Shown here in pieces: positions 4,647 through 40,366 of a stretch of DNA of 40,366 bases. This DNA comes from Utricularia gibba (lineage: Eukaryota > Streptophyta > Magnoliopsida > Lamiales > Lentibulariaceae): NCBI GenBank assembly GCA_002189035.1, contig NEEC01000257.1, positions 1-40,366 on the forward strand, read 5' to 3'. Within the stretch, counting starts at the first letter, position 1; each line of letters begins with the position of its first letter. The notes beneath the pieces were generated by a model, which saw only the letters and a list, made by a program, of their open reading frames with translations, did no database searches and had not been told where the DNA came from. The position numbers were made by a program, and so were the translations under genes.

Positions 4647-4666
4647 TAAGTTGTAGCCCGGCAAAG

Positions 4667-11768: not shown

Positions 11769-12083
11769 AAAGTGATGTATTTATTATCGTTCGGTTTTCG
11801 GGGGCTGCCTACATGGTTTTTCAAGGAACCGCTTCTCGTTTTGTGGCGGCCAGTCTCGCTGGGAACTTGGTCCTTGACCCCGATTCTGTATGGCTCATGA
11901 GGTCAACTGGATGCAAATCGATTAAAAAAAATGATGCATTTGTTTAAATTACGATGTCACGTGCACCCCACATGATTTTTTTAACAACATACTTTATACA
12001 TGAGGAGGCGGTCTTGGGGGCACTTGGAACCGGAAAAAGATCAGCTTAGGCCTTGGCCCAAAGTAAGTTGTAGCCCGGCAAAG
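11769..12083 (+). repeat. Representative alpha2 monomer (315 bp)
   Basis: The first 170 bp are those of alpha1. The 3' part carries a linked set of differences: GATGCATTTG for GATCCATTTG, TTACGATGTC for TTATGATGTC, a T-run followed by AACAACATACTTTATACATGAGG instead of CAACAACTTACTTTATACTTGAG, and GTCTTGGGGGC instead of GTCTTTGGGTGC. The same set recurs in monomers starting at 620, 14571, 15491, 16112, 17654, 18585, 19209, 20145, 21708, 23269 and elsewhere, often with further single-base losses. Because it is a haplotype of linked substitutions seen many times, I treat it as a real subclass and not sequencing noise. It is concentrated in the pentamer regions and is absent from the long alpha1-beta blocks. 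Confidence 0.88.
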
Positions 12084-13020
12084 AAAGTGATGTATTTATT
12101 AACGTTCGGTTTTCGGTGTTGCCTACATGGTTTTTCAAGGAACAGCTTCTCGTTTTGTGGCGGCCAGTCTCGCTAGGAACTTGGTCCGGGCCCGCGATTC
12201 TTTATGGCTCATGAGGACAAAAGGATGCAAATCGATGAATACAATGTTGCATTTGTTTAAATTGCGATATCACGTGCACCCCACATGATTTTTTCAACAA
12301 CTTACTTTATACTTGAGCAGGCGGTCTTTGGGTGCACTGGAACGGGACAAAGGTAAGGTTTGGCTTGCACCGAGAGTTAGTTGTAGTCCGGCAAATAAAG
12401 TGATGTATTTATTATCGTTCGGTTTTCGGGGCTGCCTACATGGTTTTTCAAGGAACCGCTTCTCGTTTTGTGGCGGCCAGTCTCGCTGGGAACTTGGTCC
12501 TTGACCCGATTCTGTATGGCTCATGAGGTCAACTGGATGCAAATCGATTAAAAAAAATGATCCATTTGTTTAAATTATGATGTCACGTGCACCCCACATG
12601 ATTTTTTCAACAACTTACTTTATACTTGAGAAGGCGGTCTTGGGTGCACTTGGAACCGGAAAAAGATCAGCTTAGGCCTTGGCCCAAAGTAAGTTGTAGC
12701 CCGGCAAAGAAAGTGATGTATTTATTAACGTTCGGTTTTCGGTGTTGCCTACATGGTTTTTCAAGGAACAGCTTCTCGTTTTGTGGCGGCCAGTCTCGCT
12801 AGGAACTTGGTCCGGGCCCGCGATTCTTTATGGCTCATGAGGACAAAAGGATGCAAATCGATGAATACAATGTTGCATTTGTTTAAATTGCGATATCACG
12901 TGCACCCCACATGATTTTTTCAACAACTTACTTTATACTTGAGCAGGCGGTCTTTGGGTGCACTGGAACGGGACAAAGGTAAGGTTTGGCTTGCCCAGAG
13001 TTAGTTGTAGTCCGGCAAAT
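11769..13020 (+). repeat. Alpha2-beta and alpha1-beta dimers
   Basis: Monomers start at 11769 (alpha2), 12084 (beta), 12397 (alpha1) and 12710 (beta). This four-monomer stretch is the pentamer order with the hybrid monomer missing. It marks the change from the uniform dimer block on its left to the pentamer block on its right, and may represent the arrangement before the hybrid was inserted or one from which it was lost. Confidence 0.85.
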
Positions 13021-14570
13021 AAAGTGATGTATTTATTATCGTTCGGTTTTCGGGCTGCCTACATGGTTTTTCAAGGAACCGCTTCTCGTTTTGTGGCGGC
13101 CAGTCTCGCTGGGAACTTGGTCCTCCCCGATTCTGTATGGCTCATGAGGTCAACTGGATGCAAATCGATTAAAAAAAATGATGCATTTGTTTAAATTACG
13201 ATGTCACGTGCACCCCACATGATTTTTTTAACAACTACTTTATACTTGAGAGGCGGTCTTTGGGGCACTTGGAACCGGAAAAAGATCAGCTTAGGCCTTG
13301 GCCCAAAGTAAGTTGTAGCCCGGCAAAGAAAGTGATGTATTTATTAACGTTCGGTTTTCGGTGTTGCCTACATGGTTTTTCAAGGAACAGCTTCTCGTTT
13401 TGTGGCGGCCAGTCTCGCTGGGAACTTGGTCCTTGACCCGATTCTGTATGGCTCATGAGGTCAACTGGATGCAAATCGATTAAAAAAAATGATTGCATTT
13501 GTTTAAATTATGATGTCACGTGCACCCCACATGATTTTTTCAACAACTTACTTTATACTTGAGAAGGCGGTCTTTGGGTGCACTTGGAACCGGAAAAAGA
13601 TCAGCTTAGGCCTTGGCCCAAAGTAAGTTGTAGCCCGGCAAAGAAAGTGATGTATTTATTAACGTTCGGTTTTCGGTGTTGCCTACATGGTTTTTCAAGG
13701 AACAGCTTCTCGTTTTGTGGCGGCCAGTCTCGCTAGGAACTTGGTCCGGGCCCGCGATTCTTATGGCTCATGAGGACAAAAGGATGCAAATCGATGAATA
13801 CAATGTTGCATTTGTTTAAATTGCGATATCACGTGCACCCCACATGATTTTTTCAACAACTTACTTTATACTTGAGCAGGCGGTCTTTGGTGCACCTGGA
13901 ACGGGACAAAGAAGCTTTGGCTTGCACCGAAGTTAGTTGTAGCCGGCAAATAAAGTGATGTATTATTATCGTTCGGTTTTCGGGGTGCCTACATGGTTTT
14001 TCAAGGAACGCTTCTCGTTTGTGGCGGCCAGTCTCGCTGGAAACTTGGTCCTTGACCCCGATTCTGTATGGCTCATGAGGTCAACTGGATGCAAATCGAT
14101 TAAAAAAAGATCCATTTGTTTAAATTATGATGTCACGTGCACCCCACATGATTTTTTCAACAACTTACTTTATACTTGAAGGCGGTCTTTGGGTGCACTT
14201 GGAACCGGAAAAAGATCAGCTTAGGCCTTGGCCCAAAGTAAGTTGTAGCCCGGCAAAGAAGTGATGTATTTATTAACGTTCGGTTTTCGGTGTTGCCTAC
14301 ATGGTTTTTCAAGGAACAGCTTCTCGTTTTGTGCGGCCAGTCTCGCTAGGAACTTGGTCCGGGCCCGCGATTCTTTATGGCTCATGAGGACAAAAGGATG
14401 CAAATCGATGAATACAATGTTGCATTTGTTTAAATTGCGATATCACGTGCACCCCACATGATTTTTTCAACAACTTACTTTATACTTGAGCAGGCGGTCT
14501 TGGGTGCACCTTGGAACGGGACAAAGGTAAGGTTTGGCTTGCACCGAGAGTTAGTTGTAGTCCGGCAAAT
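13021..14570 (+). repeat. Pentamer 1 (alpha2-H-beta-alpha1-beta, 1550 bp)
   Basis: Monomers start at 13021 (alpha2), 13329 (hybrid), 13644 (beta), 13952 (alpha1) and 14259 (beta). This is the first appearance of the five-monomer order. The beta copy at 13644 has a private variant, AAAGAAGCTTTGGC in place of AAAGGTAAGGTTTGGC. The alpha1 copy at 13952 reads GATGTATTATTATCG, one T short. Confidence 0.85.
13329..13643 (+). repeat. Hybrid monomer H (beta 5' / alpha1 3')
   Basis: The first 100 bp are beta (ATTAACG, GGTGTTGCC, GAACAGC) and the rest is alpha1 (CTGGGAAC, CCTTGACCC, GTCAACTGG, TTATGATGTC, GAGAAGG, AAAGATCAGC). The switch falls in the shared stretch between GAACAGC and CTGGGAAC. It reads AATGATTGCATTTG, with a TTGC like that of beta. 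Confidence 0.85.
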
Positions 14571-16111
14571 AAAGTGATGTATTTATTATCGTTCGGTTTC
14601 GGGGGCTGCCTACATGGTTTTTCAAGGAACCGCTTCTCGTTTTGTGGCGGCCAGTCTCGCTGGGAACTTGGTCCTTGATTCTGTATGGCTCATGAGGTCA
14701 ACTGGATGCAAATCGATTAAAAAAATGATGCATTTGTTTAAATTACGATGTCACGTGCACCACATGATTTTTTAACAACATACTTTATACATGAGAGGCG
14801 GTCTTGGGGGGCACTTGGAACCGGAAAAAGATCAGCTTAGGCCTTGGCCCAAAGTAAGTTGTAGCCCGGCAAAAAGTGATGTATTTATTACGTTCGGTTT
14901 TCGGGTTGCCTACATGGTTTTTCAAGGAACAGCTTCTCGTTTTGTGGCGGCCAGTCTCGCTGGGAACTTGGTCCTTGACCCGATTCTGTATGGCTCATGA
15001 GGTCAACTGGATGCAAATCGATTAAAAAAATGATGCATTTGTTTAAATTATGATGTCACGTGCACCCCACATGATTTTTTAACAACTTACTTTATACTTG
15101 AGAGGCGGTCTTTGGGTGCACTTGGAACCGGAAAAAGATCAGCTTAGGCCTTGGCCCAAAGTAAGTTGTAGCCGGCAAAGAAAGTGATGTATTTATTAAC
15201 GTTCGGTTTTCGGTGTTGCCTACATGGTTTTTCAAGGAACAGCTTCTCGTTTTGTGGCGGCCAGTCTCGCTAGGAACTTGGTCCGGGCCCGATTCTTATG
15301 GCTCATGAGGACAAAAGGATGCAAATCGATGAATACAATGTTGCATTTGTTTAAATTGCGATATCACGTGCACCCCACATGATTTTTTCAACAACTTACT
15401 TTATACTTGAGCAGGCGGTCTTTGGGTGCACCTGGAACGGGACAAAGGTAAGGTTTGGCTTGCACGAGAGTTAGTTGTAGTCCGGCAAATAAAGTGATGT
15501 ATTTATTATCGTTCGGTTTTCGGGGCTGCCTACATGGTTTTTCAAGGAACCGCTTCTCGTTTTGTGGCGGCCAGTCTCGCTGGGAACTTGGTCCTTGACC
15601 CCGATTCTGTATGGCTCATGAGGTCAACTGGATGCAAATCGATTAAAAAAAATGATGCATTTGTTTAAATTACGATGTCACGTGCACCCCACATGATTTT
15701 TTAACAACATACTTTATACATGAGGAGGGTCTTGGGGGGCACTTGGAACCGGAAAAAGATCAGCTTAGGCCTGGCCCAAAGTAAGTTGTAGCCCGGCAAA
15801 GAAAGTGATGTATTTATTAACGTTCGGTTTTCGGTGTTGCCTACATGGTTTTTCAAGGAACAGCTTCTCGTTTTGTGGCGGCCAGTCTCGCTAGGAACTT
15901 GGTCCGGGCCCGCGATTCTTTATGGCTCATGAGGACAAAAGGATGCAAATCGATGAATACAATGTTGCATTTGTTTAAATTGCGATATCACGTGCACCCC
16001 ACATGATTTTTTCAACAACTTACTTTATACTTGAGCAGGCGGTCTTTGGGTGCACCTGGAACGGGACAAAGGTAAGGTTTGGCTTGCAAAGTTAGTTGTA
16101 GTCCGGCAAAT
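14571..16111 (+). repeat. Pentamer 2 (alpha2-H-beta-alpha2-beta, 1541 bp)
   Basis: Monomers start at 14571 (alpha2), 14873 (hybrid), 15181 (beta), 15491 (alpha2) and 15802 (beta). The fourth position is alpha2 where pentamer 1 has alpha1. The first alpha2 lost ACCCCG between CCTTG and ATTCTG. Confidence 0.82.
14873..15180 (+). repeat. Hybrid monomer H (beta 5' / alpha 3')
   Basis: The 5' part has GAACAGC and the later part CTGGGAAC, CCTTGACCC and GTCAACTGG. The 5' end is degraded (TTATTACGTTCGG and CGGGTTGCC). The 3' part has TTATGATGTC with the T-run followed by AACAAC, and AAAGATCAGC. Confidence 0.82.
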
Positions 16112-17653
16112 AAAGTGATGTATTTATTATCGTTCGGTTTTCGGGGGCTGCCTACATGGTTTTTCAAGGAACCGCTTCTCGTTTGTGGCGGCCAGTCTCG
16201 CTGGGAACTTGGTCCTTGACCCCGATTCTGTATGGCTCATGAGGTCAACTGGATGCAAATCGATTAAAAAAAAATGATCCATTTGTTTAAATTACGATGT
16301 CACGTGCACCCCACATGATTTTTTTAACAACATACTTTATACATGAGGAGGCGGTCTTGGGGGCACTTGGAACCGGAAAAAGATCAGCTTAGGCCTTGGC
16401 CCAAAGTAAGTTGTAGCCCGGCAAAGAAAGTGATGTATTTATTAACGTTCGGTTTTCGGTGTTGCCTACATGGTTTTTCAAGGAACAGCTTCTCGTTTTG
16501 TGGCGGCCAGTCTCGCTAGGAACTTGGTCCGGGCCCGCGATTCTTTATGGCTCATGAGGACAAAAGGATGCAAATCGATGAATACAATGTTGCATTTGTT
16601 TAAATTGCGATATCACGTGCACCCCACATGATTTTTTCAACAACTTACTTTATACTTGAGAAGGCGGTCTTTGGGTGCACTTGGAACGGAAAAAGGTCAG
16701 CTTAGGCCTTGGCCCAAAGTAAGTTGTAGCCCGGCAAAGAAAGTGATGTATTTATTAACGTTCGGTTTTCGGGTTGCCTACATGGTTTTTCAAGGAACAG
16801 CTTCTCGTTTTGTGGCGGCCAGTCTCGCTGGAACTTGGTCCGGCCCCGATTCTTTATGGCTCATGAGGACAAAAGGATGCAAATCGATGAATACAATGTT
16901 GCATTTGTTTAAATTGCGATATCACGTGCACCCCACATGATTTTTTCAACAACTTACTTTATACTTGAGAGGCGGTCTTTGGGTGCACTGGAACGGGAAA
17001 AGGCTTTGGCTTGCCCAAGTAAGTTGTAGTCCGGCAAATAAAGTGATGTATTTATTATCGTTCGGTTTTCGGGGCTGCCTACATGGTTTTTCAAGGAACC
17101 GCTTCTCGTTTTGTGGCGGCCAGTCTCGCTGGGAACTTGGTCCTTGACCCGATTCTGTATGGCTCATGAGGTCAACTGGATGCAAATCGATTAAAAAAAA
17201 TGATCATTTGTTTAAATTACGATCACGTGCACCCCACATGATTTTTTAACAACTACTTTATACTGAGAGGCGGTCTTGGGGGCACTTGGAACCGGAAAAA
17301 GATCAGCTTAGGCCTTGGCCCAAAGTAAGTTGTAGCCCGGCAAAGAAAGTGATGTATTTATTAACGTTCGGTTTTCGGTGTTGCCTACATGGTTTTTCAA
17401 GGAACAGCTTCTCGTTTTGTGGCGGCCAGTCTCGCTAGGAACTTGGTCCGGGCCCCGATTCTTTATGGCTCATGAGGACAAAAGGATGCAAATCGATGAA
17501 TACAATGTTGCATTTGTTTAAATTGCGATATCACGTGCACCCCACATGATTTTTTTCAACAACTTACTTTATACTTGAGCAGGCGGTCTTTGGGGCACTG
17601 GAACGGGAAAAGGTAAGGTTTGGCTTGCCAGAGTTAGTTGTAGTCCGGCAAAT
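16112..17653 (+). repeat. Pentamer 3 (alpha2-H'-beta-alpha2-beta, 1542 bp)
   Basis: Monomers start at 16112 (alpha2), 16427 (late-breakpoint hybrid), 16740 (beta), 17040 (alpha2) and 17346 (beta). The beta at 16740 is 300 bp and reads CGGGTTGCC and CTGGAAC, with a shortened 3' end GGGAAAAGGCTTTGGC. The alpha2 at 17040 has lost TGT from GATGTCAC. Confidence 0.8.
16427..16739 (+). repeat. Hybrid monomer H' (beta to about 225 bp, then alpha)
   Basis: The beta character extends through CTAGGAAC, CCGGGCCCGCG, GACAAAAGG and GATATCAC. After ACTTTATACTTGAG it becomes alpha: AAGGCGG, CACTTGG, GGTCAGCTTAGGCC and a 3' end of GCAAAGAAAG. The switch is thus about 150 bp further along than in H. Confidence 0.82.
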
Positions 17654-19208
17654 AAAGTGATGTATTTATTATCGTTCGGTTTTCGGGGGCTGCCTACATG
17701 GTTTTTCAAGGAACCGCTTCTCGTTTGTGGCGGCCAGTCTCGCTGGGAACTTGGTCCTTGACCCGATTCTGTATGGCTCATGAGGTCAACTGGATGCAAA
17801 TCGATTAAAAAAAATGATCCATTTGTTTAAATTACGATGTCACGTGCACCCCACATGATTTTTTTAACAACATACTTTATACATGAGGAGGCGGTCTTGG
17901 GGGGCACTTGGAACCGGAAAAAGATCAGCTTAGGCCTTGGCCCAAAGTAAGTTGTAGCCCGGCAAAGAAAGTGATGTATTTATTAACGTTCGGTTTTCGG
18001 TGTTGCCTACATGGTTTTTCAAGGAACAGCTTCTCGTTTTGTGCGGCCAGTCTCGCTAGGAACTTGGTCCGGGCCCGCGATTCTTTATGGCTCATGAGGA
18101 CAAAAGGATGCAAATCGATGAAACAATGTTGCATTTGTTTAAATTGCGATATCACGTGCACCCCACATGATTTTTTAACAACTTACTTTATACTTGAGAA
18201 GGCGGTCTTTGGGTGCACTTGGAACCGGAAAAAGATCAGCTTAGGCCTTGGCCCAAAGTAAGTTGTAGCCCGGCAAAGAAAGTGATGTATTTATTAACGT
18301 TCGGTTTTCGGTGTTGCCTACATGGTTTTTCAAGGAACAGCTTCTCGTTTTGTGGCGGCCAGTCTCGCTAGGAACTTGGTCCGGGCCCGCGATTCTTTAT
18401 GGCTCATGAGGACAAAAGGATGCAAATCGATGAAAATGTTGCATTTGTTTAAATTGCGATATCACGTGCACCCACATGATTTTTTCAACAACTTACTTTA
18501 TACTTGAGCAGGCGGTCTTTGGGTGCACCTGGGGACAAAGGTAAGGTTTGGCTTGCACCGAGAGTTAGTTGTAGTCCGGCAAATAAAGTGATGTATTTAT
18601 TATCGTTCGGTTTTCGGGGCTGCCTACATGGTTTTTCAAGGAACCGCTTCTCGTTTTGTGGCGGCCAGTCTCGCTGGGAACTTGGTCCTTGACCCCGATT
18701 CTGTATGGCTCATGAGGTCAACTGGATGCAAATCGATTAAAAAAAATGATCATTTGTTTAAATTACGATGTCACGTGCACCCCACATGATTTTTTTAACA
18801 ACATACTTTATACATGAGGAGGCGGTCTTGGGGGGCACTTGGAACCGGAAAAAGATCAGCTTAGGCCTTGGCCCAAAGTAAGTTGTAGCCCGGCAAAGAA
18901 AGTGATGTATTTATTAACGTTCGGTTTTCGGTGTTGCCTACATGGTTTTTCAAGGAACAGCTTCTCGTTTTGGGCGGCCAGTCTCGCTAGGAACTTGGTC
19001 CGGGCCCGCGATTCTTTATGGCTCATGAGGACAAAAGGATGCAAATCGATGAATAAATGTTGCATTTGTTTAAATTGCGATATCACGTGCACCCACATGA
19101 TTTTTTCAACAACTTACTTTATACTTGAGAGGCGGTCTTTGGGTGCACCTGGAACGGGACAAAGGTAAGGTTTGGCTTGCAAAGAGAGTTAGTTGTAGTC
19201 CGGCAAAT
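17654..19208 (+). repeat. Pentamer 4 (alpha2-H'-beta-alpha2-beta, 1555 bp)
   Basis: Monomers start at 17654 (alpha2), 17968 (late-breakpoint hybrid), 18279 (beta), 18585 (alpha2) and 18899 (beta). It repeats the order of pentamer 3. The beta at 18279 lost AAC from CTGGAACGGGAC, giving CTGGGGAC. Confidence 0.82.
17968..18278 (+). repeat. Hybrid monomer H' (beta to about 225 bp, then alpha)
   Basis: It is beta through GATATCAC, then alpha from GAGAAGG to GCAAAGAAAG with GATCAGC. It differs from the H' at 16427 at the GATC/GGTC position and in the CCGG/CGG context, so the two are not identical copies. Confidence 0.82.
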
Positions 19209-20144
19209 AAAGTGATGTATTTATTATCGTTCGGTTTTCGGGGGCTGCCTACATGGTTTTTCAAGGAACCGCTTCTCGTTTTGTGGCGGCCAGTCTCGCT
19301 GGGAACTTGGTCCTTGACCCCGATTCTGTATGGCTCATGAGGTCAACTGGATGCAAATCGATTAAAAAAAATGATGCATTTGTTTAAATTACGATGTCAC
19401 GTGCACCCCACATGATTTTTTTAACAACATACTTTATACATGAGGAGGCGGTCTTGGGGGCACTTGGAACCGGAAAAAGATCAGCTTAGGCCTTGGCCAA
19501 AAGTAAGTTGTAGCCGGCAAATAAAGTGATGTATTTATTATCGTTCGGTTTTCGGGGTGCCTACATGGTTTTTCAAGGAACCGCTTCTCGTTTTGTGGCG
19601 GCCAGTCTCGCTGGGAACTTGGTCCTTGACCCGATTCTGTATGGCTCATGAGGTCAACTGGATGCAAATCGATTAAAAAAAATGATGCATTTGTTTAAAT
19701 TATATGTCACGTGCACCCCACATGATTTTTTTAACAACATACTTTATACTGAGAAGGCGGTCTTTGGGGCACTTGGAACCGGAAAAAGATCAGCTTAGGC
19801 CTTGGCCCAAGTAAGTTGTAGCCCGGCAAAGAAAGTGATGTATTTATTAACGTTCGGTTTTCGGTGTTGCCTACATGGTTTTTCAAGGAACAGCTTCTCG
19901 TTTTGTGGCGGCCAGTCTCGCTAGGAACTTGGTCCGGGCCCGCGATTCTTTATGGCTCATGAGGACAAAAGGATGCAAATCGATGAATACAATGTTGCAT
20001 TTGTTTAAATTGCGATATCACGTGCACCCCACATGATTTTTTCAACAACTTACTTTATACTTGAGCAGGCGGTCTTTGGGTGCACCTGGAACGGGACAAA
20101 GGTAAGGTTTGGCTTGCACGAGAGTTAGTTGTAGTCCGGCAAAT
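19209..20144 (+). repeat. Irregular trimer with an alpha-alpha junction (936 bp)
   Basis: Monomers start at 19209 (alpha2), 19523 (alpha) and 19832 (beta). The alpha2 ends GTAAGTTGTAGCCGGCAAATAAAG, switching to the beta-type 3' end (AAATAAAG), and is followed by a unit with the alpha 5' end ATTATCG. This is the only place where alpha follows alpha. The second alpha sits where a hybrid would be expected. The trimer can be read as a pentamer that lost its last two monomers. Confidence 0.8.
19523..19831 (+). repeat. Alpha monomer occupying a hybrid position
   Basis: It follows another alpha (19209-19522). Its 5' half is alpha (ATTATCG, GAACCGC). Its 3' half mixes ACATACTTTATACTGAG with GAAGGCGGTCTTTGGGGC. 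It reads TTATATGTCAC, missing the GA of TTATGATGTCAC. Confidence 0.8.
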
Positions 20145-21707
20145 AAAGTGATGTATTTATTATCGTTCGGTTTTCGGGGGCTGCCTACATGGTTTTTCAA
20201 GGAACCGCTTCTCGTTTTGTGGCGGCCAGTCTCGCTGGGAACTTGGTCCTTGACCCCGATTCTGTATGGCTCATGAGGTCAACTGGATGCAAATCGATTA
20301 AAAAAATGATCATTTGTTTAAATTACGATGTCACGTGCACCCCACATGATTTTTTTAACAACATACTTTATACTGAGGAGGCGGTCTTGGGGGGCACTTG
20401 GAACCGGAAAAAGATCAGCTTAGGCCTTGGCCCAAAGTAAGTTGTAGCCCGGCAAAGAAAGTGATGTATTTATTAACGTTCGGTTTTCGGTGTTGCCTAC
20501 ATGGTTTTTCAAGGAACAGCTTCTCGTTTTGTGGCGGCCAGTCTCGCTGGGAACTTGGTCCTTGACCCCGATTCTGTATGGCTCATGAGGTCAACTGGAT
20601 GCAAATCGATTAAAAAAAATGATGCATTTGTTTAAATTATGATGTCACGTGCACCCCACATGATTTTTTAACAACTACTTTATACATGAGGAGGCGGTCT
20701 TGGGGGCACTTGGAACGGAAAAAGGTCAGCTTAGGCTTGGCCCAAAGTAAGTTGTAGCCCGGCAAAGAAAGTGATGTATTTATTAACGTTCGGTTTTCGG
20801 TGTTGCCTACATGGTTTTTCAAGGAACAGCTTCTCGTTTTGTGGCGGCCAGTCTCGCTAGGAACTTGGTCCGGGCCCCGCGATTCTTTATGGCTCATGAG
20901 GACAAAGGATGCAAATCGATGAATACAATGTTGCATTTGTTTAAATTGCGATATCACGTGCACCCACATGATTTTTTCAACAACTTACTTTATACTTGAG
21001 CAGGCGGTCTTTGGGTGCACCTGGAACGGGACAAAGGTAAGGTTGGGCTTGCACGAGAGTTAGTTGTAGTCCGGCAAATAAAGTGATGTATTTATTATCG
21101 TTCGTTTTTTCGGGGGCTGCCTACATGGTTTTTCAAGGAACGCTTCTCGTTTTGTGGCGGCCAGTCTCGCTGGGAACTTGGTCCTTGACCCCGATTCTGT
21201 ATGGCTCATGAGGTCAACTGGATGCAAATCGATTAAAAAAAATGATGCATTTGTTTAAATTATGATGTCACGTGCACCCCACATGATTTTTTCAACAACT
21301 TACTTTATACTTGAGAAGGCGGTCTTTGGGTGCACTTGGAACCGGAAAAAGATCAGCTTAGGCTTGGCCAAAGTAAGTTGTAGCCCGGCAAAGAAAGTGA
21401 TGTATTTATTAACGTTCGGTTTTCGGTGTTGCCTACATGGTTTTTCAAGGAACAGCTTCTCGTTTTGTGGCGGCCAGTCTCGCTAGGAACTTGGTCCGGG
21501 CCCGCGATTCTTTATGGCTCATGAGGACAAAAGGATGCAAATCGATGAATACAATGTTGCATTTGTTTAAATTGCGATATCACGTGCACCCCACATGATT
21601 TTTTCAACAACTTACTTTATACTTGAGCAGGCGGTCTTTGGGTGCACCTGGAACGGGACAAAGGTAAGGTTTGGCTTGCACCGAGAGTTAGTTGTAGTCC
21701 GGCAAAT
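20145..21707 (+). repeat. Pentamer 5 (alpha2-H-beta-alpha1-beta, 1563 bp)
   Basis: Monomers start at 20145 (alpha2), 20458 (hybrid), 20768 (beta), 21080 (alpha1-like with GATGC) and 21394 (beta). The alpha at 21080 pairs GATGC with TTATGATGTC and GAGAAGG, and the same mixed form recurs at 22640. Confidence 0.85.
20458..20767 (+). repeat. Hybrid monomer H (beta 5' / alpha2-like 3')
   Basis: GAACAGC is followed by CTGGGAAC, CCTTGACCCC and GTCAACTGG. The 3' part has GATGC, TTATGATGTC, ATACATGAGGAGG and GGTCAGC. This combination recurs at 22018. Confidence 0.85.
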
Positions 21708-23268
21708 AAAGTGATGTATTTATTATCGTTCGGTTTTCGGGGCTGCCTACATGGTTTTTCAAGGAACCGCTTCTCGTTTTGTGGCGGCCAGTCTCGCTGG
21801 GAACTTGGTCCTTGACCCGATTCTGTATGGCTCATGAGGTCAACTGGATGCAAATCGATTAAAAAAAATGATGCATTTGTTTAAATTACGATGTCACGTG
21901 CACCCCACATGATTTTTTCAACATACTTTATACATGAGGAGGCGGTCTTGGGGGCACTTGGAACCGGAAAAAGATCAGCTTAGGCCTTGGCCCAAAGTAA
22001 GTTGTAGCCCGGCAAAGAAAGTGATGTATTTATTAACGTTCGGTTTTCGGTGTTGCCTACATGGTTTTTCAAGGAACAGCTTCTCGTTTTGTGGCGGCCA
22101 GTCTCGCTGGGAACTTGGTCCTTGACCCGATTCTGTATGGCTCATGAGGTCAACTGGATGCAAATCGATTAAAAAAAAATGATGCATTTGTTTAAATTAT
22201 GATGTCACGTGCACCCCACATGATTTTTTTAACTACTTTATACATGAGGAGGCGGTCTTGGGGGCACTTGGAACCGGAAAAAGGTCAGCTTAGGCCTTGG
22301 CCCAAAGTAAGTTGTAGCCCGGCAAAGAAAGTGATGTATTTATTAACGTTCGGTTTTCGGTGTTGCCTACATGGTTTTTCAAGGAACAGCTTCTCGTTTT
22401 GTGGCGGCCAGTCTCGCTAGGAACTTGGTCCGGGCCCGCGATTCTTTATGGCTCATGAGGACAAAAGGATGCAAATCGATGAATACAATGTTGCATTTGT
22501 TTAAATTGCGATATCACGTGCACCCCACATGATTTTTTCAACAACTTACTTTATACTTGAGCAGGCGGTCTTTGGGTGCACTGGAACGGACAAAGGTAAG
22601 GTTTGGCTTGCACCGAGAGTTAGTTGTAGTCCGGCAAATAAAGTGATGTATTTATTATCGTTCGGTTTTCGGGGGCTGCCTACATGGTTTTTCAAGGAAC
22701 CGCTTCTCGTTTTGTGGCGGCCAGTCTCGCTGGGAACTTGGTCCTTGACCCCGATTCTGTATGGCTCATGAGGTCAACTGGATGCAAATCGATTAAAAAA
22801 AATGATGCATTTGTTTAAATTATGATGTCACGTGCACCCCACATGATTTTTTCAACAACTTACTTTATACTTGAGAAGGCGGTCTTTGGGTGCACTTGGA
22901 ACCGGAAAAAGATCAGCTTAGGCCTTGGCCCAAAGTAAGTTGTAGCCCGGCAAAGAAAGTGATGTATTTATTAACGTTCGGTTTTCGGTGTTGCCTACAT
23001 GGTTTTTCAAGGAACAGCTTCTCGTTTTGTGGCGGCCAGTCTCGCTAGGAACTTGGTCCGGGCCCGCGATTCTTTATGGCTCATGAGGACAAAAGGATGC
23101 AAATCGATGAAACAATGTTGCATTTGTTTAAATTGCGATATCACGTGCACCCCACATGATTTTTTCAACAACTTACTTTATACTTGAGCAGGCGGTCTTT
23201 GGGTGCACCTGGAACGGGACAAAGGTAAGGTTTGGCTTGCACCGAGAGTTAGTTGTAGTCCGGCAAAT
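21708..23268 (+). repeat. Pentamer 6 (alpha2-H-beta-alpha1-beta, 1561 bp)
   Basis: Monomers start at 21708 (alpha2), 22018 (hybrid), 22328 (beta), 22640 (alpha1-like with GATGC) and 22956 (beta). It matches pentamer 5 monomer for monomer, including GATGC in the fourth unit and GGTCAGC in the hybrid, so the two are likely neighbouring copies of one amplified pentamer. Confidence 0.87.
22018..22327 (+). repeat. Hybrid monomer H (beta 5' / alpha2-like 3')
   Basis: It has the same haplotype as the hybrid at 20458, with GGTCAGC, and a shortened AACTACTTTATACATGAGG after the T-run. Confidence 0.85.
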
Positions 23269-23894
23269 AAAGTGATGTATTTATTATCGTTCGGTTTTCG
23301 GGGGCTGCCTACATGGTTTTTCAAGGAACCGCTTCTCGTTTTGTGGCGGCCAGTCTCGCTGGGAACTTGGTCCTTGACCCCGATTCTGTATGGCTCATGA
23401 GGTCAACTGGATGCAAATCGATTAAAAAAAATGATGCATTTGTTTAAATTACGATGTCACACACCCACATGATTTTTTTAACAACATACTTTATACTGAG
23501 GAGGCGGTCTTGGGGGGCACTTGGAACCGGAAAAAAGGTCAGCTTAGGCCTTGGCCCAAAGTAAGTTGTAGCCCGGCAAAGAAAGTGATGTATTTATTAA
23601 CGTTCGGTTTTCGGTGTTGCCTACATGGTTTTTCAAGGAACAGCTTCTCGTTTTGTGGCGGCCAGTCTCGCTAGGAACTTGGTCCGGGCCCGCGATTCTT
23701 TATGGCTCATGAGGACAAAAGGATGCAAATCGATGAATACAATGTTGCATTTGTTTAAATTGCGATATCACGTGCACCCCACATGATTTTTTCAACAACT
23801 TACTTTATACTTGAGCAGGCGGTCTTTGGGGGCACCTGGAACGGGACAAAGGTAAGGTTTGGCTTGCACGAGAGTTAGTTGTAGTCCGGCAAAT
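23269..23894 (+). repeat. Dimer between pentamers, alpha2 with a hybrid-type 3' end
   Basis: An alpha2 (23269) is followed directly by beta (23582). The alpha2 copy carries GGTCAGC, which elsewhere marks hybrids, instead of GATCAGC. It therefore looks like a join of the 5' part of alpha2 to the 3' part of a hybrid, which would remove one monomer length. It also reads GATGTCACACACCCACATG, so the usual CACGTG palindrome is lost. Confidence 0.78.
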
Positions 23895-25439
23895 AAAGTG
23901 ATGTATTTATTATCGTTCGGTTTTCGGGGGCTGCCTACATGGTTTTTCAAGGAACCGCTTCTCGTTTTGTGGCGGCCAGTCTCGCTGGGAACTTGGTCCT
24001 TGACCCGATTCTGTATGGCTCATGAGGTCAACTGGATGCAAATCGATTAAAAAAAATGATGCATTTGTTTAAATTACGATGTCACGTGCCCCACATGATT
24101 TTTTAACAACTTACTTTATACTGAGGAGGCGGTCTTGGGGGGCACTTGGAACCGGAAAAAGATCAGCTTAGGCCTAAAGTAAGTTGTAGCCCGGCAAAGA
24201 AAGTGATGTATTTATTAACGTTCGGTTTTCGGTGTTGCCTACATGGTTTTTCAAGGAACAGCTTCTCGTTTTGTGGCGGCCAGTCTCGCTGGAACTTGGT
24301 CCTTGACCCCGATTCTGTATGGCTCATGAGGTCAACTGGATGCAAATCGATTAAAAAAAATGATGCATTTGTTTAAATTGATGTCACGTGCACCCACATG
24401 ATTTTTTAACAACTACTTTATACTGAGGAGGCGGTCTTTGGGGGGCACTTGGAACCGGAAAAAGGTCAGCTTAGGCCTTGGCCCAAAGTAAGTTGTAGCC
24501 CGGCAAAGAAAGTGATGTATTTATTAACGTTCGGTTTTCGGTGTTGCCTACATGGTTTTTCAAGGAACAGCTTCTCGTTTTGTGGCGGCCAGTCTCGCTA
24601 GGAACTTGGTCCGGGCCCCGATTCTTTATGGCTCATGAGGACAAAAGGATGCAAATCGATGAATACAATGTTGCATTTGTTTAAATTGCGATATCACGTG
24701 CACCCCACATGATTTTTTCAACAACTTACTTTATACTTGAGCAGGCGGTCTTTGGGTGCACCTGGAACGGGACAAAGGTAAGGTTTGGCTTGCCGAGAGT
24801 TAGTTGTAGTCCGGCAAATAAAGTGATGTATTTATTATCGTTCGGTTTTCGGGGCTGCCTACATGGTTTTTCAGGAACCGCTTCTCGTTTTGTGGCGGCC
24901 AGTCTCGCTGGGAACTTGGTCCTTGACCCCGATTCTGTATGGCTCATGAGGTCAACTGGATGCAAATCGATTAAAAAAAATGATCCATTTGTTTAAATTA
25001 TGATGTCACGTGCACCCCACATGATTTTTTCAACAACTTACTTTATACTTGAGAAGGCGGTCTTGGGTGCACTTGGAACCGGAAAAAGATCAGCTTAGGC
25101 TTGGCCCAAAGTAAGTTGTAGCCGGCAAAGAAAGTGATGTATTTATTAACGTTCGGTTTCGGTGTTGCCTACATGGTTTTTCAAGGAACAGCTTCTCGTT
25201 TTGTGGCGGCCAGTCTCGCTAGGAACTTGGTCCGGCCCGCGATTCTTTATGGCTCATGAGGACAAAAGGATGCAAATCGATGAATACAATGTTGCATTTG
25301 TTTAAATTGCGATATCACGTGCACCCACATGATTTTTTCAACAACTTACTTTATACTTGAGCAGGCGGTCTTTGGGTGCACCTGGAACGGGACAAAGGTA
25401 AGGTTTGGCTTGCCGAGAGTTAGTTGTAGTCCGGCAAAT
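23895..25439 (+). repeat. Pentamer 7 (alpha2-H-beta-alpha1-beta, 1545 bp)
   Basis: Monomers start at 23895 (alpha2), 24200 (hybrid), 24509 (beta), 24820 (alpha1 with GATCC) and 25131 (beta). The first unit lost TTGGCCC from GGCCTTGGCCCAAAG, and the two beta units share the shortened TTGCCGAGAG. Confidence 0.85.
24200..24508 (+). repeat. Hybrid monomer H (beta 5' / alpha2-like 3')
   Basis: The 5' part is beta to GAACAGC, then alpha from CTGGAAC onward, with GATGC, ATACTGAGGAGG, TTTGGGGGGCAC and GGTCAGC. Confidence 0.84.
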
Positions 25440-26989
25440 AAAGTGATGTATTTATTATCGTTCGGTTTTCGGGGCTGCCTACATGGTTTTTCAAGGAACC
25501 GCTTCTCGTTTTGTGGCGGCCAGTCTCGCTGGGAACTTGGTCCTTGACCCCGATTCTGTATGGCTCATGAGGTCAACTGGATGCAAATCGATTAAAAAAA
25601 TGATGCATTTGTTTAAATTACGATGTCACGTGCACCCCACATGATTTTTTTAACAACTTACTTTATACTGAGGAGGCGGTCTTGGGGGCACTTGGAACCG
25701 GAAAAAGATCAGCTTAGGCCTTGGCCCAAAGTAAGTTGTAGCCCGGCAAAGAAAGTGATGTATTTATTAACGTTCGGTTTTCGGTGTTGCCTACATGGTT
25801 TTTCAAGGAACAGCTTCTCGTTTTGTGGCGGCCAGTCTCGCTGGGAACTTGGTCCCCCCGATTCTTATGGCTCATGAGGTCAACTGGATGCAAATCGATT
25901 AAAAAATGATGCATTTGTTTAAATTGATGTCACGTGCACCCCACATGATTTTTTTAACAACTTACTTTATACTGAGAGGCGGTCTTTGGGGGGCACTTGG
26001 AACCGGAAAAAGGTCAGCTTAGGCTTGGCCCAAAGTAAGTTGTAGCCCGGCAAAGAAAGTGATGTATTTATTAACGTTCGGTTTTCGGTGTTGCCTACAT
26101 GGTTTTTCAAGGAACAGCTTCTCGTTTTGTGGCGGCCAGTCTCGCTAGGAACTTGGTCCGGGCCCGCGATTCTTTATGGCTCATGAGGACAAAAGGATGC
26201 AAATCGATGAATACAATGTTGCATTTGTTTAAATTGCGATATCACGTGCACCCACATGATTTTTTCAACAACTTACTTTATACTTGAGCAGGCGGTCTTT
26301 GGGTGCACCTGGAACGGGACAAAGGTAAGGTTGGCTTGCACCGAGAGTTAGTTGTAGTCCGGCAAATAAAGTGATGTATTTATTATCGTTCGGTTTTCGG
26401 GGCTGCCTACATGGTTTTTCAAGGAACCGCTTCTCGTTTTGTGGCGGCCAGTCTCGCTGGGAACTTGGTCCTTGACCCGATTCTGTATGGCTCATGAGGT
26501 CAACTGGATGCAAATCGATTAAAAAAAAGATCCATTTGTTTAAATTATGATGTCACGTGCACCCCACATGATTTTTTCAACAACTTACTTTATACTTGAG
26601 AAGGCGGTCTTGGGTGCACTTGGAACCGGAAAAAGATCAGCTTAGGCTTGGCCCAAAGTAAGTTGTAGCCCGGCAAAGAAAGTGATGTATTTATTAACGT
26701 TCGGTTTTCGGTGTTGCCTACATGGTTTTTCAAGGAACAGCTTCTCGTTTTGTGGCGGCCAGTCTCGCTAGGAACTTGGTCCGGGCCCGCGATTCTTTAT
26801 GGCTCATGAGGACAAAAGGATGCAAATCGATGAATACAATGTTGCATTTGTTTAAATTGCGATATCACGTGCACCCCACATGATTTTTTCAACTTACTTT
26901 ATACTTGAGCAGGCGGTCTTTGGGTGCACCTGGAACGGGACAAAGGTAAGGTTTGGCTTGCACCGAGAGTTAGTTGTAGTCCGGCAAAT
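25440..26989 (+). repeat. Pentamer 8 (alpha2-H-beta-alpha1-beta, 1550 bp)
   Basis: Monomers start at 25440 (alpha2), 25752 (hybrid), 26056 (beta), 26368 (alpha1) and 26679 (beta). The alpha2 has ACTTACTTTATACTGAGGAGG, a form intermediate between the alpha1 and alpha2 haplotypes. Confidence 0.85.
25752..26055 (+). repeat. Hybrid monomer H (beta 5' / alpha2-like 3')
   Basis: It is beta to GAACAGC, then alpha. The centre is disturbed: GGTCCCCCCGATTCTTATGG where alpha normally has GGTCCTTGACCCCGATTCTGTATGG. It carries GGTCAGC. Confidence 0.82.
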
Positions 26990-28491
26990 AAAGTGATGTA
27001 TTTATTATCGTTCGGTTTCGGGGGCTGCCTACATGGTTTTTCAAGGAACCGCTTCTCGTTTTGTGGCGGCCAGTCTCGCTGGGAACTTGGTCCCCCGATT
27101 CTGTATGGCTCATGAGGTCAACTGGATGCAAATCGATTAAAAAAATGATGCATTTGTTTAAATTACGATGTCACGTGCACCCACATGATTTTTTAACAAC
27201 TTACTTTATACTGAGGAGGCGGTCTTGGGGGGCACTTGGAACCGGAAAAGATCAGCTTAGGCCTGGCCCAAAGTAAGTTGTAGCCGGCAAAGAAAGTGAT
27301 GTATTTATTAACGTTCGGTTTTCGGTGTTGCCTACATGGTTTTTCAAGGAACAGCTTCTCGTTTTGTGGCGCCAAAAAAATATGGCTCATGAGGTCAACT
27401 GGATGCAAATCGATCATTTGTTTAAATTATGATGTCACGTGCACCCCACATGATTTTTAACAACTTACTTTATACTTGAGAGGCGGTCTTGGGGGCACTT
27501 GGAACGGAAAAGGTCAGCTTAGGCCTTGGCCCAAGTAAGTTGTAGCCCGGCAAAGAAAGTGATGTATTTATTAACGTTCGGTTTTCGGTGTTGCCTACAT
27601 GGTTTTTCAAGGAACAGCTTCTCGTTTTGTGGCGGCCAGTCTCGCTAGGAACTTGGTCCGGGCCCGCGATTCTTTATGGCTCATGAGGACAAAAGGATGC
27701 AAATCGATGAATACAATGTTGCATTTGTTTAAATTGCGATATCACGTGCACCCCACATGATTTTTTCAACAACTTACTTTATACTTGAAGGCGGTCTTTG
27801 GGTGCACCTGGAACGGGACAAAGGTAAGGTTTGGCTTGCAGAGAGTTAGTTGTAGTCCGGCAAATAAAGTGATGTATTTATTATCGTTCGGTTTTCGGGG
27901 GCTGCCTACATGGTTTTTCAAGGAACCGCTTCTCGTTTTTGGCGGCCAGTCTCGCTGGGAACTTGGTCCTTGACCCCGATTCTGTATGGCTCATGAGGTC
28001 AACTGGATGCAAATCGATTAAAAAAAATGATCCATTTGTTTAAATTATGATGTCACGTGCACCCCACATGATTTTTTCAACAACTTACTTTATACTTGAG
28101 AAGGCGGTCTTTGGGTGCACTTGGAACCGGAAAAAGATCAGCTTAGGCCTTGGCCCAAAGTAAGTTGTAGCCCGGCAAAGAAAGTGATGTATTTATTAAC
28201 GTTCGGTTTTCGGTGTTGCCTACATGGTTTTTCAAGGAACAGCTTCTCGTTTTGTGGCGGCCAGTCTCGCTAGGAACTTGGTCCGGCCCGCGATTCTTTA
28301 TGGCTCATGAGGACAAAAGGATGCAAATCGATGAATACAATGTTGCATTTGTTTAAATTGCGATATCACGTGCACCCACATGATTTTTCAACAACTTACT
28401 TTATACTTGAGCAGGCGGTCTTTGGGTGCACCTGGAACGGGACAAAGGTAAGGTTTGGCTTGCACCGAGAGTTAGTTGTAGTCCGGCAAAT
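26990..28491 (+). repeat. Pentamer 9, with internally deleted hybrid (1502 bp)
   Basis: Monomers start at 26990 (alpha2), 27293 (hybrid, 263 bp), 27556 (beta), 27866 (alpha1) and 28181 (beta). The order is intact, and the shorter length is explained by the rearranged hybrid. This is the last pentamer before a long run of plain dimers. Confidence 0.85.
27293..27555 (+). repeat. Internally deleted hybrid monomer (263 bp) with a displaced A-run
   Basis: It starts as beta (GAACAGC) and ends as alpha with GGTCAGC. About 38 bp between GCCA and TATGGCTC are missing and replaced by a run of A (27374-27380 is seven A). The A-run that normally follows ATCGATT is absent: the sequence reads AATCGATCATTTG. 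It is the shortest unit in the window. Confidence 0.85.
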
Positions 28492-31400
28492 AAAGTGATG
28501 TATTTATTATCGTTCGGTTTTCGGGGGCTGCCTACATGGTTTTTCAAGGAACCGCTTCTCGTTTGTGGCGGCCAGTCTCGCTGGGAACTTGGTCCTTGAC
28601 CCCGATTCTGTATGGCTCATGAGGTCAACTGGATGCAAATCGATTAAAAAAAATGATCCATTTGTTTAAATTATGATGTCACGTGCACCCCATGATTTTT
28701 TCAACAACTTACTTTATACTTGAGAAGGCGGTCTTTGGGTGCACTTGGAACCGGAAAAAGATCAGCTTAGGCCTTGGCCAAAGTAAGTTGTAGCCCGGCA
28801 AAGAAAGTGATGTATTTATTAACGTTCGGTTTTCGGTGTTGCCTACATGGTTTTTCAAGGAACAGCTTCTCGTTTTGTGGCGGCCAGTCTCGCTAGGAAC
28901 TTGGTCCGGGCCCGATTCTTTATGGCTCATGAGGACAAAAGGATGCAAATCGATGAATACAATGTTGCATTTGTTTAAATTGCGATATCACGTGCACCCC
29001 ACATGATTTTTTCAACAACTTACTTTATACTTGAGCAGGCGGTCTTTGGGTGCACCTGGAACGGGACAAAGGTAAGGTTTGGCTTGCACCGAGAGTTAGT
29101 TGTAGTCCGGCAAATAAAGTGATGTATTTATTATCGTTCGGTTTTCGGGGGCTGCCTACATGGTTTTTCAAGGAACCGCTTCTCGTTTTGTGGCGGCCAG
29201 TCTCGCTGGGAACTTGGTCCTTGACCCCGATTCTGTATGGCTCATGAGGTCAACTGGATGCAAATCGATTAAAAAAAAATGATCCATTTGTTTAAATTAT
29301 GATGTCACGTGCACCCACATGATTTTTTCAACAACTTACTTTATACTTGAGAGGCGGTCTTTGGGTGCACTTGGAACCGGAAAAAGATCAGCTTAGGCCT
29401 TGGCCCAAAGTAAGTTGTAGCCCGGCAAAGAAAGTGATGTATTTATTAACGTTCGGTTTTCGGTGTTGCCTACATGGTTTTTCAAGGAACAGCTTCTCGT
29501 TTTTGGCGGCCAGTCTCGCTAGGAACTTGGTCCGGGCCCGCGATTCTTTATGGCTCATGAGGACAAAAGGATGCAAATCGATGAATACAATGTTGCATTT
29601 GTTTAAATTGCGATATCACGTGCACCCCACATGATTTTTTCAACAACTTACTTTATACTTGAGCAGGCGGTCTTTGGGTGCACCTGGAACGGGACAAAGG
29701 TAAGGTTTGGCTTGCACGAGAGTTAGTTGTAGTCCGGCAAATAAAGTGATGTATTTATTATCGTTCGGTTTTCGGGGGCTGCCTACATGGTTTTTCAAGG
29801 AACCGCTTCTCGTTTTGTGGCGGCCAGTCTCGCTGGGAACTTGGTCCTTGACCCCGATTCTGTATGGCTCATGAGGTCAACTGGATGCAAATCGATTAAA
29901 AAAAATGATCCATTTGTTTAAATTATGATGTCACGTGCACCCCACATGATTTTTTCAACAACTTACTTTATACTTGAGAAGGCGGTCTTGGGTGCACTTG
30001 GAACCGGAAAAAGATCAGCTTAGGCCTTGGCCCAAAGTAAGTTGTAGCCCGGCAAAGAAAGTGATGTATTTATTAACGTTCGGTTTTCGGTGTTGCCTAC
30101 ATGGTTTTTCAAGGAACAGCTTCTCGTTTTGTGGCGGCCAGTCTCGCTAGGAACTTGGTCCGGCCCGCGATTCTTTATGGCTCATGAGGACAAAAGGATG
30201 CAAATCGATGAATACAATGTTGCATTTGTTTAAATTGCGATATCACGTGCACCCCACATGATTTTTTCAACAACTTACTTTATACTTGAGCAGGCGGTCT
30301 TTGGGTGCACCTGGAACGGACAAAGGTAAGGTTTGGCTTGCACCGAGAGTTAGTTGTAGTCCGGCAAATAAAGTGATGTATTTATTATCGTTCGGTTTTC
30401 GGGGGCTGCCTACATGGTTTTTCAAGAACCGCTTCTCGTTTTGTGGCGGCCAGTCTCGCTGGGAACTTGGTCCTTGACCCCGATTCTGTATGGCTCATGA
30501 GGTCAACTGGATGCAAATCGATTAAAAAAAATGATCCATTTGTTTAAATTATGATGTCACGTGCACCCCACATGATTTTTTCAACAACTTACTTTATACT
30601 TGAGAAGGCGGTCTTTGGGTGCACTTGGAACCGGAAAAAGATCAGCTTAGGCCTTGGCCCAAAGTAAGTTGTAGCCCGGCAAAGAAAGTGATGTATTTAT
30701 TAACGTTCGGTTTTCGGTGTTGCCTACATGGTTTTTCAAGGAACAGCTTCTCGTTTTGTGGCGGCCAGTCTCGCTAGGAACTTGGTCCGGCCCGCGATTC
30801 TTTATGGCTCATGAGGACAAAAGGATGCAAATCGATGAATACAATGTTGCATTTGTTTAAATTGCGATATCACGTGCACCCCACATGATTTTTTCAACAA
30901 CTTACTTTATACTTGAGCAGGCGGTCTTTGGGTGCACCTGGAACGGGACAAAGGTAAGGTTTGGCTTGCACCGAGAGTTAGTTGTAGTCCGGCAAATAAA
31001 GTGATGTATTTATTATCGTTCGGTTTTCGGGGGCTGCCTACATGGTTTTTCAAGGAACCGCTTCTCGTTTTGTGGCGGCCAGTCTCGCTGGGAACTTGGT
31101 CCTTGACCCCGATTCTGTATGGCTCATGAGGTCAACTGGATGCAAATCGATTAAAAAAAATGATCCATTTGTTTAAATTATGATGTCACGTGCACCCCAC
31201 ATGATTTTTTCAACAACTTACTTTATACTTGAGAAGGCGGTCTTGGGTGCACTTGGAACCGGAAAAAGATCAGCTTAGGCCTTGGCCCAAAGTAAGTTGT
31301 AGCCCGGCAAAGAAAGTGATGTATTTATTAACGTTCGGTTTTCGGTGTTGCCTACATGGTTTTTCAAGGAACAGCTTCTCGTTTTGTGGCGGCCAGTCTC

Positions 31401-40361: not shown

Positions 40362-40366
40362 AAAGT

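What the first reader, a model, noticed from the sequence alone, without database searches (positions are those of the whole stretch)
13021..28491. Pentameric higher-order repeat of about 1.55 kb nested on a dimeric one
The monomer order alpha2, hybrid, beta, alpha1 or alpha2, beta recurs nine times here, starting at 13021, 14571, 16112, 17654, 20145, 21708, 23895, 25440 and 26990 (1502-1563 bp each). Outside this region the array is almost purely an alpha-beta dimer. An odd-numbered higher-order repeat built from a strict two-class alternation needs an odd monomer, and the hybrid supplies it. That such structure marks actively exchanging satellite arrays is established for primate alpha satellite and some plant satellites. 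Applying it here is inference.
Basis: seen in the sequence. Interest (0 to 1): 0.7.

Follow-up and report, generated by a model that had tools for sequence, protein, structure and literature searches.

The report
Pentameric satellite repeat in a bladderwort
This contig is one long run of a 313-base satellite repeat, very probably from the carnivorous plant Utricularia gibba, in which out-of-step DNA exchange between two alternating versions of the repeat seems to have made hybrid copies that locally reset the pattern from two-step to five-step; this type of structure is well known, but the repeat looks undescribed in a plant whose centromeres were reported to lack satellites.

Summary
The whole 40,366-bp contig is a tandem array of 130 monomers of about 313 bp in two classes about 12% apart (alpha, beta). 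In 13021-28491 identity peaks at lag 5 (97.7%, against 94.4, 90.5 and 90.7% at lags 3, 4 and 6); shuffling whole dimer/trimer units matches it in 2 of 5000. All nine pentamers are present. Corrections: two more pentamers lie outside the region (35373, 36927); 'the hybrid' is two different recombinants (H1 switches from beta to alpha between alignment columns 61 and 92, H2 between 187 and 236); and the pentamer zone is less homogeneous than the dimer zones (lag-2 identity 99.4-99.9%), so it is not the freshest part. Every hybrid sits as alpha2-H-beta, the slot produced when arrays exchange one monomer out of register. Both hybrid junctions recur in other contigs (H1 in 11, H2 in about 20, this contig included). 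Elsewhere the satellite forms pure dimers, hybrid-rich runs, other pentamers and an 11-mer. The genome fits Utricularia gibba; the satellite is at least about 2% of it. A related satellite lies at the non-telomeric end of a 3.7-Mb contig, although a paper says putative centromeres of this plant lack satellites. Known kind of structure, new member.

The parts
1..40366 (+). Tandem array of ~313-bp satellite monomers, 130 copies, one orientation; the window is contig G000:C17:1-40366
1846..11765 (+). Dimer zone: strict alpha-beta alternation, lag-2 identity 99.43%
13018..20141 (+). Mixed pentamer zone: four pentamers (two with H1, two with H2) then an alpha-alpha-beta trimer; lag-5 identity 97.95%
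20142..28488 (+). H1 pentamer zone: five pentamers alpha2-H1-beta-alpha1-beta with one extra dimer at 23266-23891; lag-5 identity 98.19%
28489..35372 (+). Dimer zone, most homogeneous of the zones tested, lag-2 identity 99.87%
35373..36926 (+).
36927..38478 (+). Eleventh pentamer (H2 type): alpha2-H2-beta-alpha1-beta, also missed
13326..13640 (+). H1 hybrid, alpha1-like 3' part
14871..15177 (+). H1 hybrid, alpha1-like 3' part, small 5' deletions; ambiguous, H1
16424..16736 (+). H2 hybrid: beta up to column 187, alpha from column 236
17965..18275 (+). H2 hybrid
19206..20141 (+). alpha2-alpha-beta trimer: the odd slot filled by an alpha
20455..20764 (+). H1 hybrid, alpha2-like 3' part
22015..22324 (+). 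H1 hybrid
24197..24505 (+). H1 hybrid
25749..26052 (+). H1 hybrid
27290..27552 (+). H1 hybrid shortened to 263 bp by deletions, one of them over the breakpoint region
35682..35989 (+). H1 hybrid outside the reported region
37236..37538 (+). H2 hybrid outside the reported region

Best explanation
A plant satellite array with layered periods. A unit of about 157 bp doubled long ago into the 313-bp monomer; two diverged monomer classes, alpha and beta, were amplified together as a 626-bp dimer. Occasional homologous exchange between arrays misaligned by an odd number of monomers joined the 5' part of a beta to the 3' part of an alpha. Such a junction must leave alpha-H-beta, an odd trimer inside a dimer array. 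It happened at least twice, at different breakpoints (H1, H2). A trimer plus the neighbouring dimer was then copied as a pentamer, the H1 form to at least five copies that are 99.4-99.9% alike. Shown: the classes, breakpoints, slot, periodicity, and recurrence of both junctions in other contigs. Inferred: unequal exchange as the mechanism, and the order of events. The array probably belongs to pericentromeric or centromeric heterochromatin of Utricularia gibba; that location is only partly supported.
For: Lag-5 peak and nulls. Outgroup-polarised sites (7 of the 8 H1 and all 3 H2): H2 carries beta-derived states up to column 182 and alpha-derived states from 256, with single-monomer exceptions; H1 carries beta-derived states at 34 (6 of 7) and 36 (7 of 7), alpha or ancestral states from 92 to 182 with single-monomer exceptions, and mostly alpha-derived states from 183 on. 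H1 and H2 breakpoints fall in the two longest alpha1/beta identity blocks, 30 and 48 bp. In the classification all 11 hybrids are preceded by alpha2 and followed by beta, and 0 of 40 alpha1 monomers precede a hybrid. H1 pentamers at 20145, 21708, 23895, 25440 and 35373 are 99.4-99.9% alike. The 78-base H1 junction is found exactly in 42 places on 11 contigs, a 58-base H2 junction in 82 places on 20 contigs; full three-part classification finds H2-type monomers also in C60, C55, C24, C10, C96 and C485. Half-monomer homology: score 20 against a shuffled mean of 6.4, sd 2.4, maximum 16.5 of 500.
Against: No reads were seen, and the consensus has many missing bases, mostly in homopolymers (2.8-5.8 per monomer by zone); order over more than a read length may be wrong. 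The beta at 16737 looks mosaic; it and the hybrid at 14871 were ambiguous. H1 has only two beta-derived sites 5' of its breakpoint, one of them also common in another subfamily, and it lacks alpha1's derived base at column 167; five H1 keep a non-alpha base at 272. The reciprocal hybrid (alpha 5', beta 3') was not found in the window (0 of 130); elsewhere it was called once each in C10 (of 22), C24 (of 31) and C312 (of 23), apart from C8, whose monomers do not fit the alpha/beta scheme. The breakpoints lying in the two longest identity blocks has about a 6% chance probability for two random breaks (own arithmetic, (78/316) squared), so it is only consistent. The H2 search pattern rests on two sites; its 9 hits in C477 may be other monomers.
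Confidence: 0.82

Rival explanations
1. Assembly artefact: reads from different arrays were merged, giving false hybrids and a false pentamer order.
For: Many missing homopolymer bases and a few mosaic-looking monomers; the array is longer than the mean subread of 10,385 bases that a review gives for the U. gibba data (PMC5793159, passages). The exact alpha2-H-beta-alpha-beta order was not seen as a run in the other stretches sampled.
Against: Identical H1 junctions on 11 contigs and H2 junctions on 20; several pentamers fit within one 10-kb read; five pentamer copies are 99.4-99.9% alike, and another contig carries a clean pentamer of different monomers.
Confidence: 0.1
2. Gene conversion of a beta by a neighbouring alpha made the hybrids, with no change of register.
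For: H1 comes in two forms that share a breakpoint interval but differ in the 3' part (alpha1-like in 2, alpha2-like in 5), which suggests later patchy conversion.
Against: Conversion of a beta in place would leave alpha-H-alpha; all 11 hybrids are followed by a beta, so the register shifted by one monomer.
Confidence: 0.05
3. H1 and H2 are old, unrecombined monomer types; alpha and beta are the derived ones.
For: The column pair A61/G92 of H1 is the common state in other subfamilies: a junction pattern using only those sites hits 1,139 places.
Against: When polarised by three other contigs, both hybrids carry derived states of beta on one side and of alpha on the other; a stricter 78-base H1 pattern that includes beta-derived bases falls to 42 places.
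Confidence: 0.06
4. The satellite is a heterochromatic block elsewhere (a knob or a supernumerary chromosome), not (peri)centromeric.
For: Contigs C1-C6, including two with telomere at both ends (C3, C4), seem to hold no exact match to either satellite word (inferred from the contig order of capped listings). The window's own subfamily is linked to a large contig only by 126 bp (C414).
Against: 3 of 48 examined ends of 24 large contigs carry this or related satellite and none of those three is telomeric; C213 starts with telomere and has related satellite hits from 64 kb before its other end up to that end.
Confidence: 0.35

Closest known systems
Human alpha satellite higher-order repeats with hybrid monomers (CentromereArchitect, PMC8336445, passages read)
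   Same: Multi-monomer units, and hybrid monomers made of the start of one monomer and the end of another, proposed there as driving the birth of new monomers
   Different: Sequences were not compared here; 313-bp monomer instead of 171; hybrids here sit in a fixed odd slot of a dimer array; no centromere protein data
Plant centromeric satellite higher-order repeats (PMC4053949, Genome Biology 2013, passages read: Sorghum AB dimer, switchgrass multi-monomer units)
   Same: AB dimer and longer repeat units; doubling of an ancestral unit, as described there for the 343-bp New World monkey repeat
   Different: That main text has no occurrence of Utricularia; here a dimer and two odd pentamers with identified breakpoints share one contig
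~310-bp satellite at the end of contig C213 of the same genome
   Same: Same period and recognisable homology, about 73% mean identity to sampled monomers
   Different: A separate subfamily, on a large contig that starts with telomere

Membership tests
Higher-order repeat (HOR) satellite | Identity between multimers n monomers apart exceeds identity between neighbouring monomers | tested here: met
   Lag 5 97.72% against 90.10% at lag 1 and 90.48-94.43% at lags 2-4 and 6; unit-shuffle null 2 of 5000
Higher-order repeat (HOR) satellite | The multimer itself is repeated in tandem with its internal order kept | tested here: met
   Runs of 4, 2 and 3 consecutive pentamers in the region and 2 outside; the hybrid type and the second alpha subtype vary between runs
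Higher-order repeat (HOR) satellite | Position-specific variants for every monomer of the unit | tested here: not met
   Betas at positions 3 and 5 are not distinguishable (pos3-pos3 98.3, pos5-pos5 99.1, pos3-pos5 98.7); only the hybrid slot and the alpha subtype are position-specific. It is a class-order HOR, weaker than the strict kind
Centromeric satellite | Binds the centromeric histone CENH3 or lies at the primary constriction | not testable with these tools
   No ChIP or FISH data at hand
Centromeric satellite | Sits at the internal, non-telomeric side of chromosome arms | tested here: inconclusive
   3 of 48 large-contig ends carry this or related satellite, none telomeric; the C213 and C402 copies are only about 73-75% alike to the sampled monomers
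Centromeric satellite | Among the most abundant tandem repeats of the genome | tested here: inconclusive
   6,841 exact copies of one 21-base word, floor 2.1 Mb of 100.09 Mb; no other tandem repeat was counted

The most novel reading that the evidence does not exclude
Utricularia gibba, described as having putative centromeres without satellite repeats, in fact has a large centromeric or pericentromeric satellite family with layered periods (157, 313, 626 and ~1,565 bp, and an 11-mer) that sits in unplaced contigs because the arrays broke the assembly; the arrays were captured while switching between even and odd higher-order repeats through at least two out-of-register exchanges.
Probability: 0.4. 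Interest if true: 0.6.

Novelty: new member of a known kind. Interest (0 to 1): 0.42.

Why it matters
The contig lets one read off how an odd higher-order repeat can start: two separate beta/alpha junctions, each adding one odd monomer to a dimer array and then copied with a neighbouring dimer. If the satellite proves (peri)centromeric, it would also revise a published statement that putative centromeres of this tiny plant genome lack satellite repeats (PMC8333044, passage seen), and would give a probe for testing it.

Tried and rejected
Considered and rejected: a single hybrid type (two breakpoints); gene conversion as the origin (register shift); H1 as merely the ancestral monomer; position-specific betas as the source of the lag-5 peak. 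Tandem Repeats Finder, with a longest period of 500, could only report the 313-bp period. Rfam gave no match. The best place that one search reported for the pentamer outside the window was on contig C485 (1 of 715 candidates scored); that stretch turned out to be alpha-beta dimers with one H2 nearby and irregular spacing, not a second copy (15 monomers kept of 27 starts). Colinear comparison with contig C96, whose H1 junctions have similar spacing, showed a different pentamer (alpha-h-alpha-H-beta) and 96.2% identity at best. The genome paper of U. gibba (recalled as Lan et al. 2017, PNAS) is not held, so whether it describes this repeat is unknown. Rows dropped before counts: the last window monomer, and in all loci monomers outside 240-330 bp; the H1 at 27290 (two-form comparison); the beta at 16737 in the beta-by-lag table; one alpha that could not be assigned to alpha1 or alpha2. 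The alpha2 consensus was built from 13 monomers of which 9 precede hybrids, and pentamer copies are not independent, so the Fisher value (2.7e-7) overstates the evidence.
Full report
Observation. The window is contig C17:1-40366 of a 100.09-Mb, 516-contig genome. It is one tandem array in one orientation: 130 monomers of about 313 bp (Tandem Repeats Finder reports the same period). Forty-three columns vary strongly and split the monomers into alpha and beta; the alpha1 and beta consensus are 87.9% alike, alpha1 and alpha2 differ by 2.5%.

Test against chance. Ignoring gaps, mean identity in 13021-28491 is 97.72% at lag 5, 94.43 at lag 3, 90.48 at lag 4, 90.71 at lag 6 and 94.32 at lag 2. Shuffling monomers never reaches the lag-5 value (0 of 5000); the stricter shuffle, which keeps every dimer and trimer whole and only permutes them, reaches it 2 times of 5000, and the observed 17 of 19 dimer/trimer alternations are reached 21 times of 20,000. 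In the dimer zones lag 2 is 99.43% (1849-11768) and 99.87% (28492-35372).

Two more pentamers lie at 35373-36926 and 36927-38478, and the first is 99.9% like the pentamer at 23895. The hybrid slot contains two different recombinants: H1 (monomers at 13326, 14871, 20455, 22015, 24197, 25749, 27290, 35682) is beta-like up to column 61 and alpha-like from 92; H2 (16424, 17965, 37236) is beta up to 187 and alpha from 236 (column numbers of the reference alignment). H1 itself has two forms (2 monomers with an alpha1-like 3' part, 5 with an alpha2-like one, 98.4% alike; the eighth, at 27290, carries deletions and was left out). H1 and H2 are 94.4% alike. So the pentamer arose at least twice in the same form. 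Betas at positions 3 and 5 cannot be told apart, and beta-beta identity shows no trend with lag: the pentamer is an order of classes rather than five individually marked monomers.

Are the hybrids real recombinants? Three other contigs (C10, C11, C477) served as outgroups for 37 alpha1/beta differences, 35 of which could be polarised. H2 is clear: beta-derived states up to column 182, alpha-derived states from 256, with single-monomer exceptions. H1 is supported upstream by only two beta-derived sites (34 in 6 of 7 monomers; 36 in 7 of 7, but that state is also common in C477) and downstream by many alpha-derived sites, though it lacks alpha1's base at 167 and five copies differ at 272. A loose H1 pattern that separates alpha from beta only at columns 61 and 92, where H1 shows the ancestral state, hits 1,139 places, which shows why polarising matters; a 78-base pattern that includes beta-derived bases hits 42 places on 11 contigs (in this window it finds 4 of the 8 H1, so counts are lower bounds). 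The H2 junction hits 82 places on 20 contigs, but rests on two sites; without C477, where the sites are less diagnostic, 73 places on 19 contigs. The hybrids are therefore not an artefact of this contig.

Mechanism. A junction from a beta into an alpha must be preceded by an alpha and followed by a beta, and it changes the register by one monomer. That is the arrangement in 11 of 11 hybrids (the hybrid at 14871 and the beta at 16737 were ambiguous); conversion in place would instead give alpha-H-alpha. The preceding alpha is alpha2 in 11 of 11, while 0 of 40 alpha1 monomers precede a hybrid, which suggests that the alpha2-H-beta trimers were copied together (inference). Both breakpoints lie in the two longest alpha1/beta identity blocks, 30 and 48 bp, consistent with homology-limited exchange but with about a 6% chance probability (own arithmetic). 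Copying of trimer plus dimer then gave the pentamer; the H1 pentamers at 20145, 21708, 23895, 25440 and 35373 are 99.4-99.9% alike, the one at 26990 with its deleted hybrid 98.7-99.1%. The alpha-alpha-beta trimer at 19206 shows a third way of filling the odd slot. The reciprocal hybrid is absent from the window (0 of 130) and was called three times in other alpha/beta contigs.

Layers. The two halves of the monomer align with score 20 against a shuffled mean of 6.4 (sd 2.4, maximum 16.5 of 500), so 313 bp is an old doubling of about 157 bp. In stretches of up to 10 kb of other contigs the same satellite forms a pure dimer (C7, 30 of 30 monomers alternate), hybrid-rich runs (C60, 22 of 29 monomers H2; C55, 15 of 32), a clean pentamer of a different monomer set (C11:1-10000, lag 5 98.8% against 89-92% at other lags up to 9), a monomeric stretch (C11:20001-30000, 98.5-98.9% at all lags tested) and an 11-mer (C477, lag 11 93.6%, next best 90.5 among lags 1-13). 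C96 has three units alpha-h-alpha-H-beta among other orders (lag 5 95.2%, equalled at lag 12). Five-monomer units thus arose in more than one subfamily. Other stretches showed no clear higher order: C10, C24, C94 and C312 and C8.

Organism. An open RuBisCO large-subunit frame of 485 residues in what reads by eye like plastid DNA, and plant-type TTTAGGG telomeres, point to a flowering plant. Utricularia gibba fits: GenBank NEEC01000001-NEEC01000518 (PMC6982007, passage); a 6.8-Mb Unitig_8 (PMC8333044, passage) against C451 of 6,822,880 bp; contig N50 3.4 Mb (PMC5793159, passages) against half of 100.09 Mb reached at a contig of 3.45 Mb when the contig lengths seen here are summed (own arithmetic, other contigs unseen). 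Against: PMC8333044 speaks of 18 contigs above 1 Mb and four putatively whole chromosomes, while I saw 21 contigs above 1 Mb and two with telomere at both ends; PMC5793159 gives 581 contigs in one place. The identification is circumstantial; no named sequence was compared.

Abundance and place. One 21-base word occurs 6,841 times, a floor of 2.1 Mb; scaled by its detection rate in sampled loci (452 of 562 monomers) about 2.7 Mb; a second word (9,324 places) gives a floor of 2.9 and an estimate of 4.9 Mb, probably with related subfamilies. Both listings are capped at 100 places and begin at contig C7; since listings run in contig order I infer no exact match in C1-C6. I examined both ends of 24 of the 26 contigs that had kinase hits (three starts over 200 bases, one over 800, the others 1,000; stretches that read N say nothing): of 48 ends, 19 carry at least six telomere units and 3 carry this or related satellite: the end of C213, the end of C402, and 126 bp at the start of C414. 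C213 begins with telomere; its last 10 kb are a ~310-bp relative at about 73% identity, and further hits lie 56-64 kb before the end, the stretch between not being examined. C402 ends in satellite pieces inside units of about 2.3 kb. This favours a pericentromeric or centromeric place but does not prove it for the window's own subfamily.

Comparison with what is known. PMC8333044 (passages) states that putative centromeric regions of U. gibba lack satellite repeats, citing a reference that I take to be the genome paper, which is not held. Listings for Utricularia or Lentibulariaceae with satellite, centromere or tandem-repeat terms, a search for a 313-bp satellite, and passages of PMC6982007 and PMC10663240 showed no description of this repeat; most listed papers were not opened, and the unread genome paper might describe it. 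Higher-order repeats in plants, AB dimers and doubled monomers are known (PMC4053949, passages), and so are hybrid monomers in human arrays (PMC8336445, passages). The structure is therefore a new member of a known kind; what is fresh is the species and the visible two-fold origin of an odd unit.

Noticed in passing
L002 and L003 (G000:C11:1-20000): A very regular pentamer of five different monomers of the same satellite (lag 5 98.8% in the first 10 kb), passing into a monomeric stretch by 20 kb (L004); a cleaner higher-order repeat than the one in the window.
   Followed up: partly
L011 (G000:C477:60000-69999): An 11-monomer unit of about 3.39 kb that includes a shortened 252-bp monomer recurring at 1586 and 4971.
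   Followed up: partly
L010 883-2095 (G000:C477): Just after the satellite at the start of C477 lies a stretch with several long, 99% complementary inverted repeats (235, 156, 95 and 94 nt), like a foldback insertion or an assembly palindrome.
   Followed up: partly
L079, L056 (end of G000:C213): A sister satellite of ~308-310 bp, about 73% identical to the window family, at the non-telomeric end of a 3.7-Mb contig; also found on contig C56.
   Followed up: partly
L080 (end of G000:C402): Units of about 2.3 kb, each holding ~850 bp of related satellite, separated by stretches with degenerate ~62-bp tandem repeats.
   Followed up: no
window 27290-27552: One H1 hybrid with deletions (263 bp), one of them right over the breakpoint region.
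   Followed up: no
window 1-28488 versus 28489-40366: Missing bases are about 1.6-2.1 times as frequent per monomer in the left part (4.4-5.8 against 2.8), mostly in homopolymers: probably uneven consensus quality along the contig.
   Followed up: no
G000 contigs C1, C2, C409, C505, C507, C515: Lengths are exact multiples of 2,500 (for example 8,500,000 and 6,192,500), as if contigs had been cut at fixed bins.
   Followed up: no
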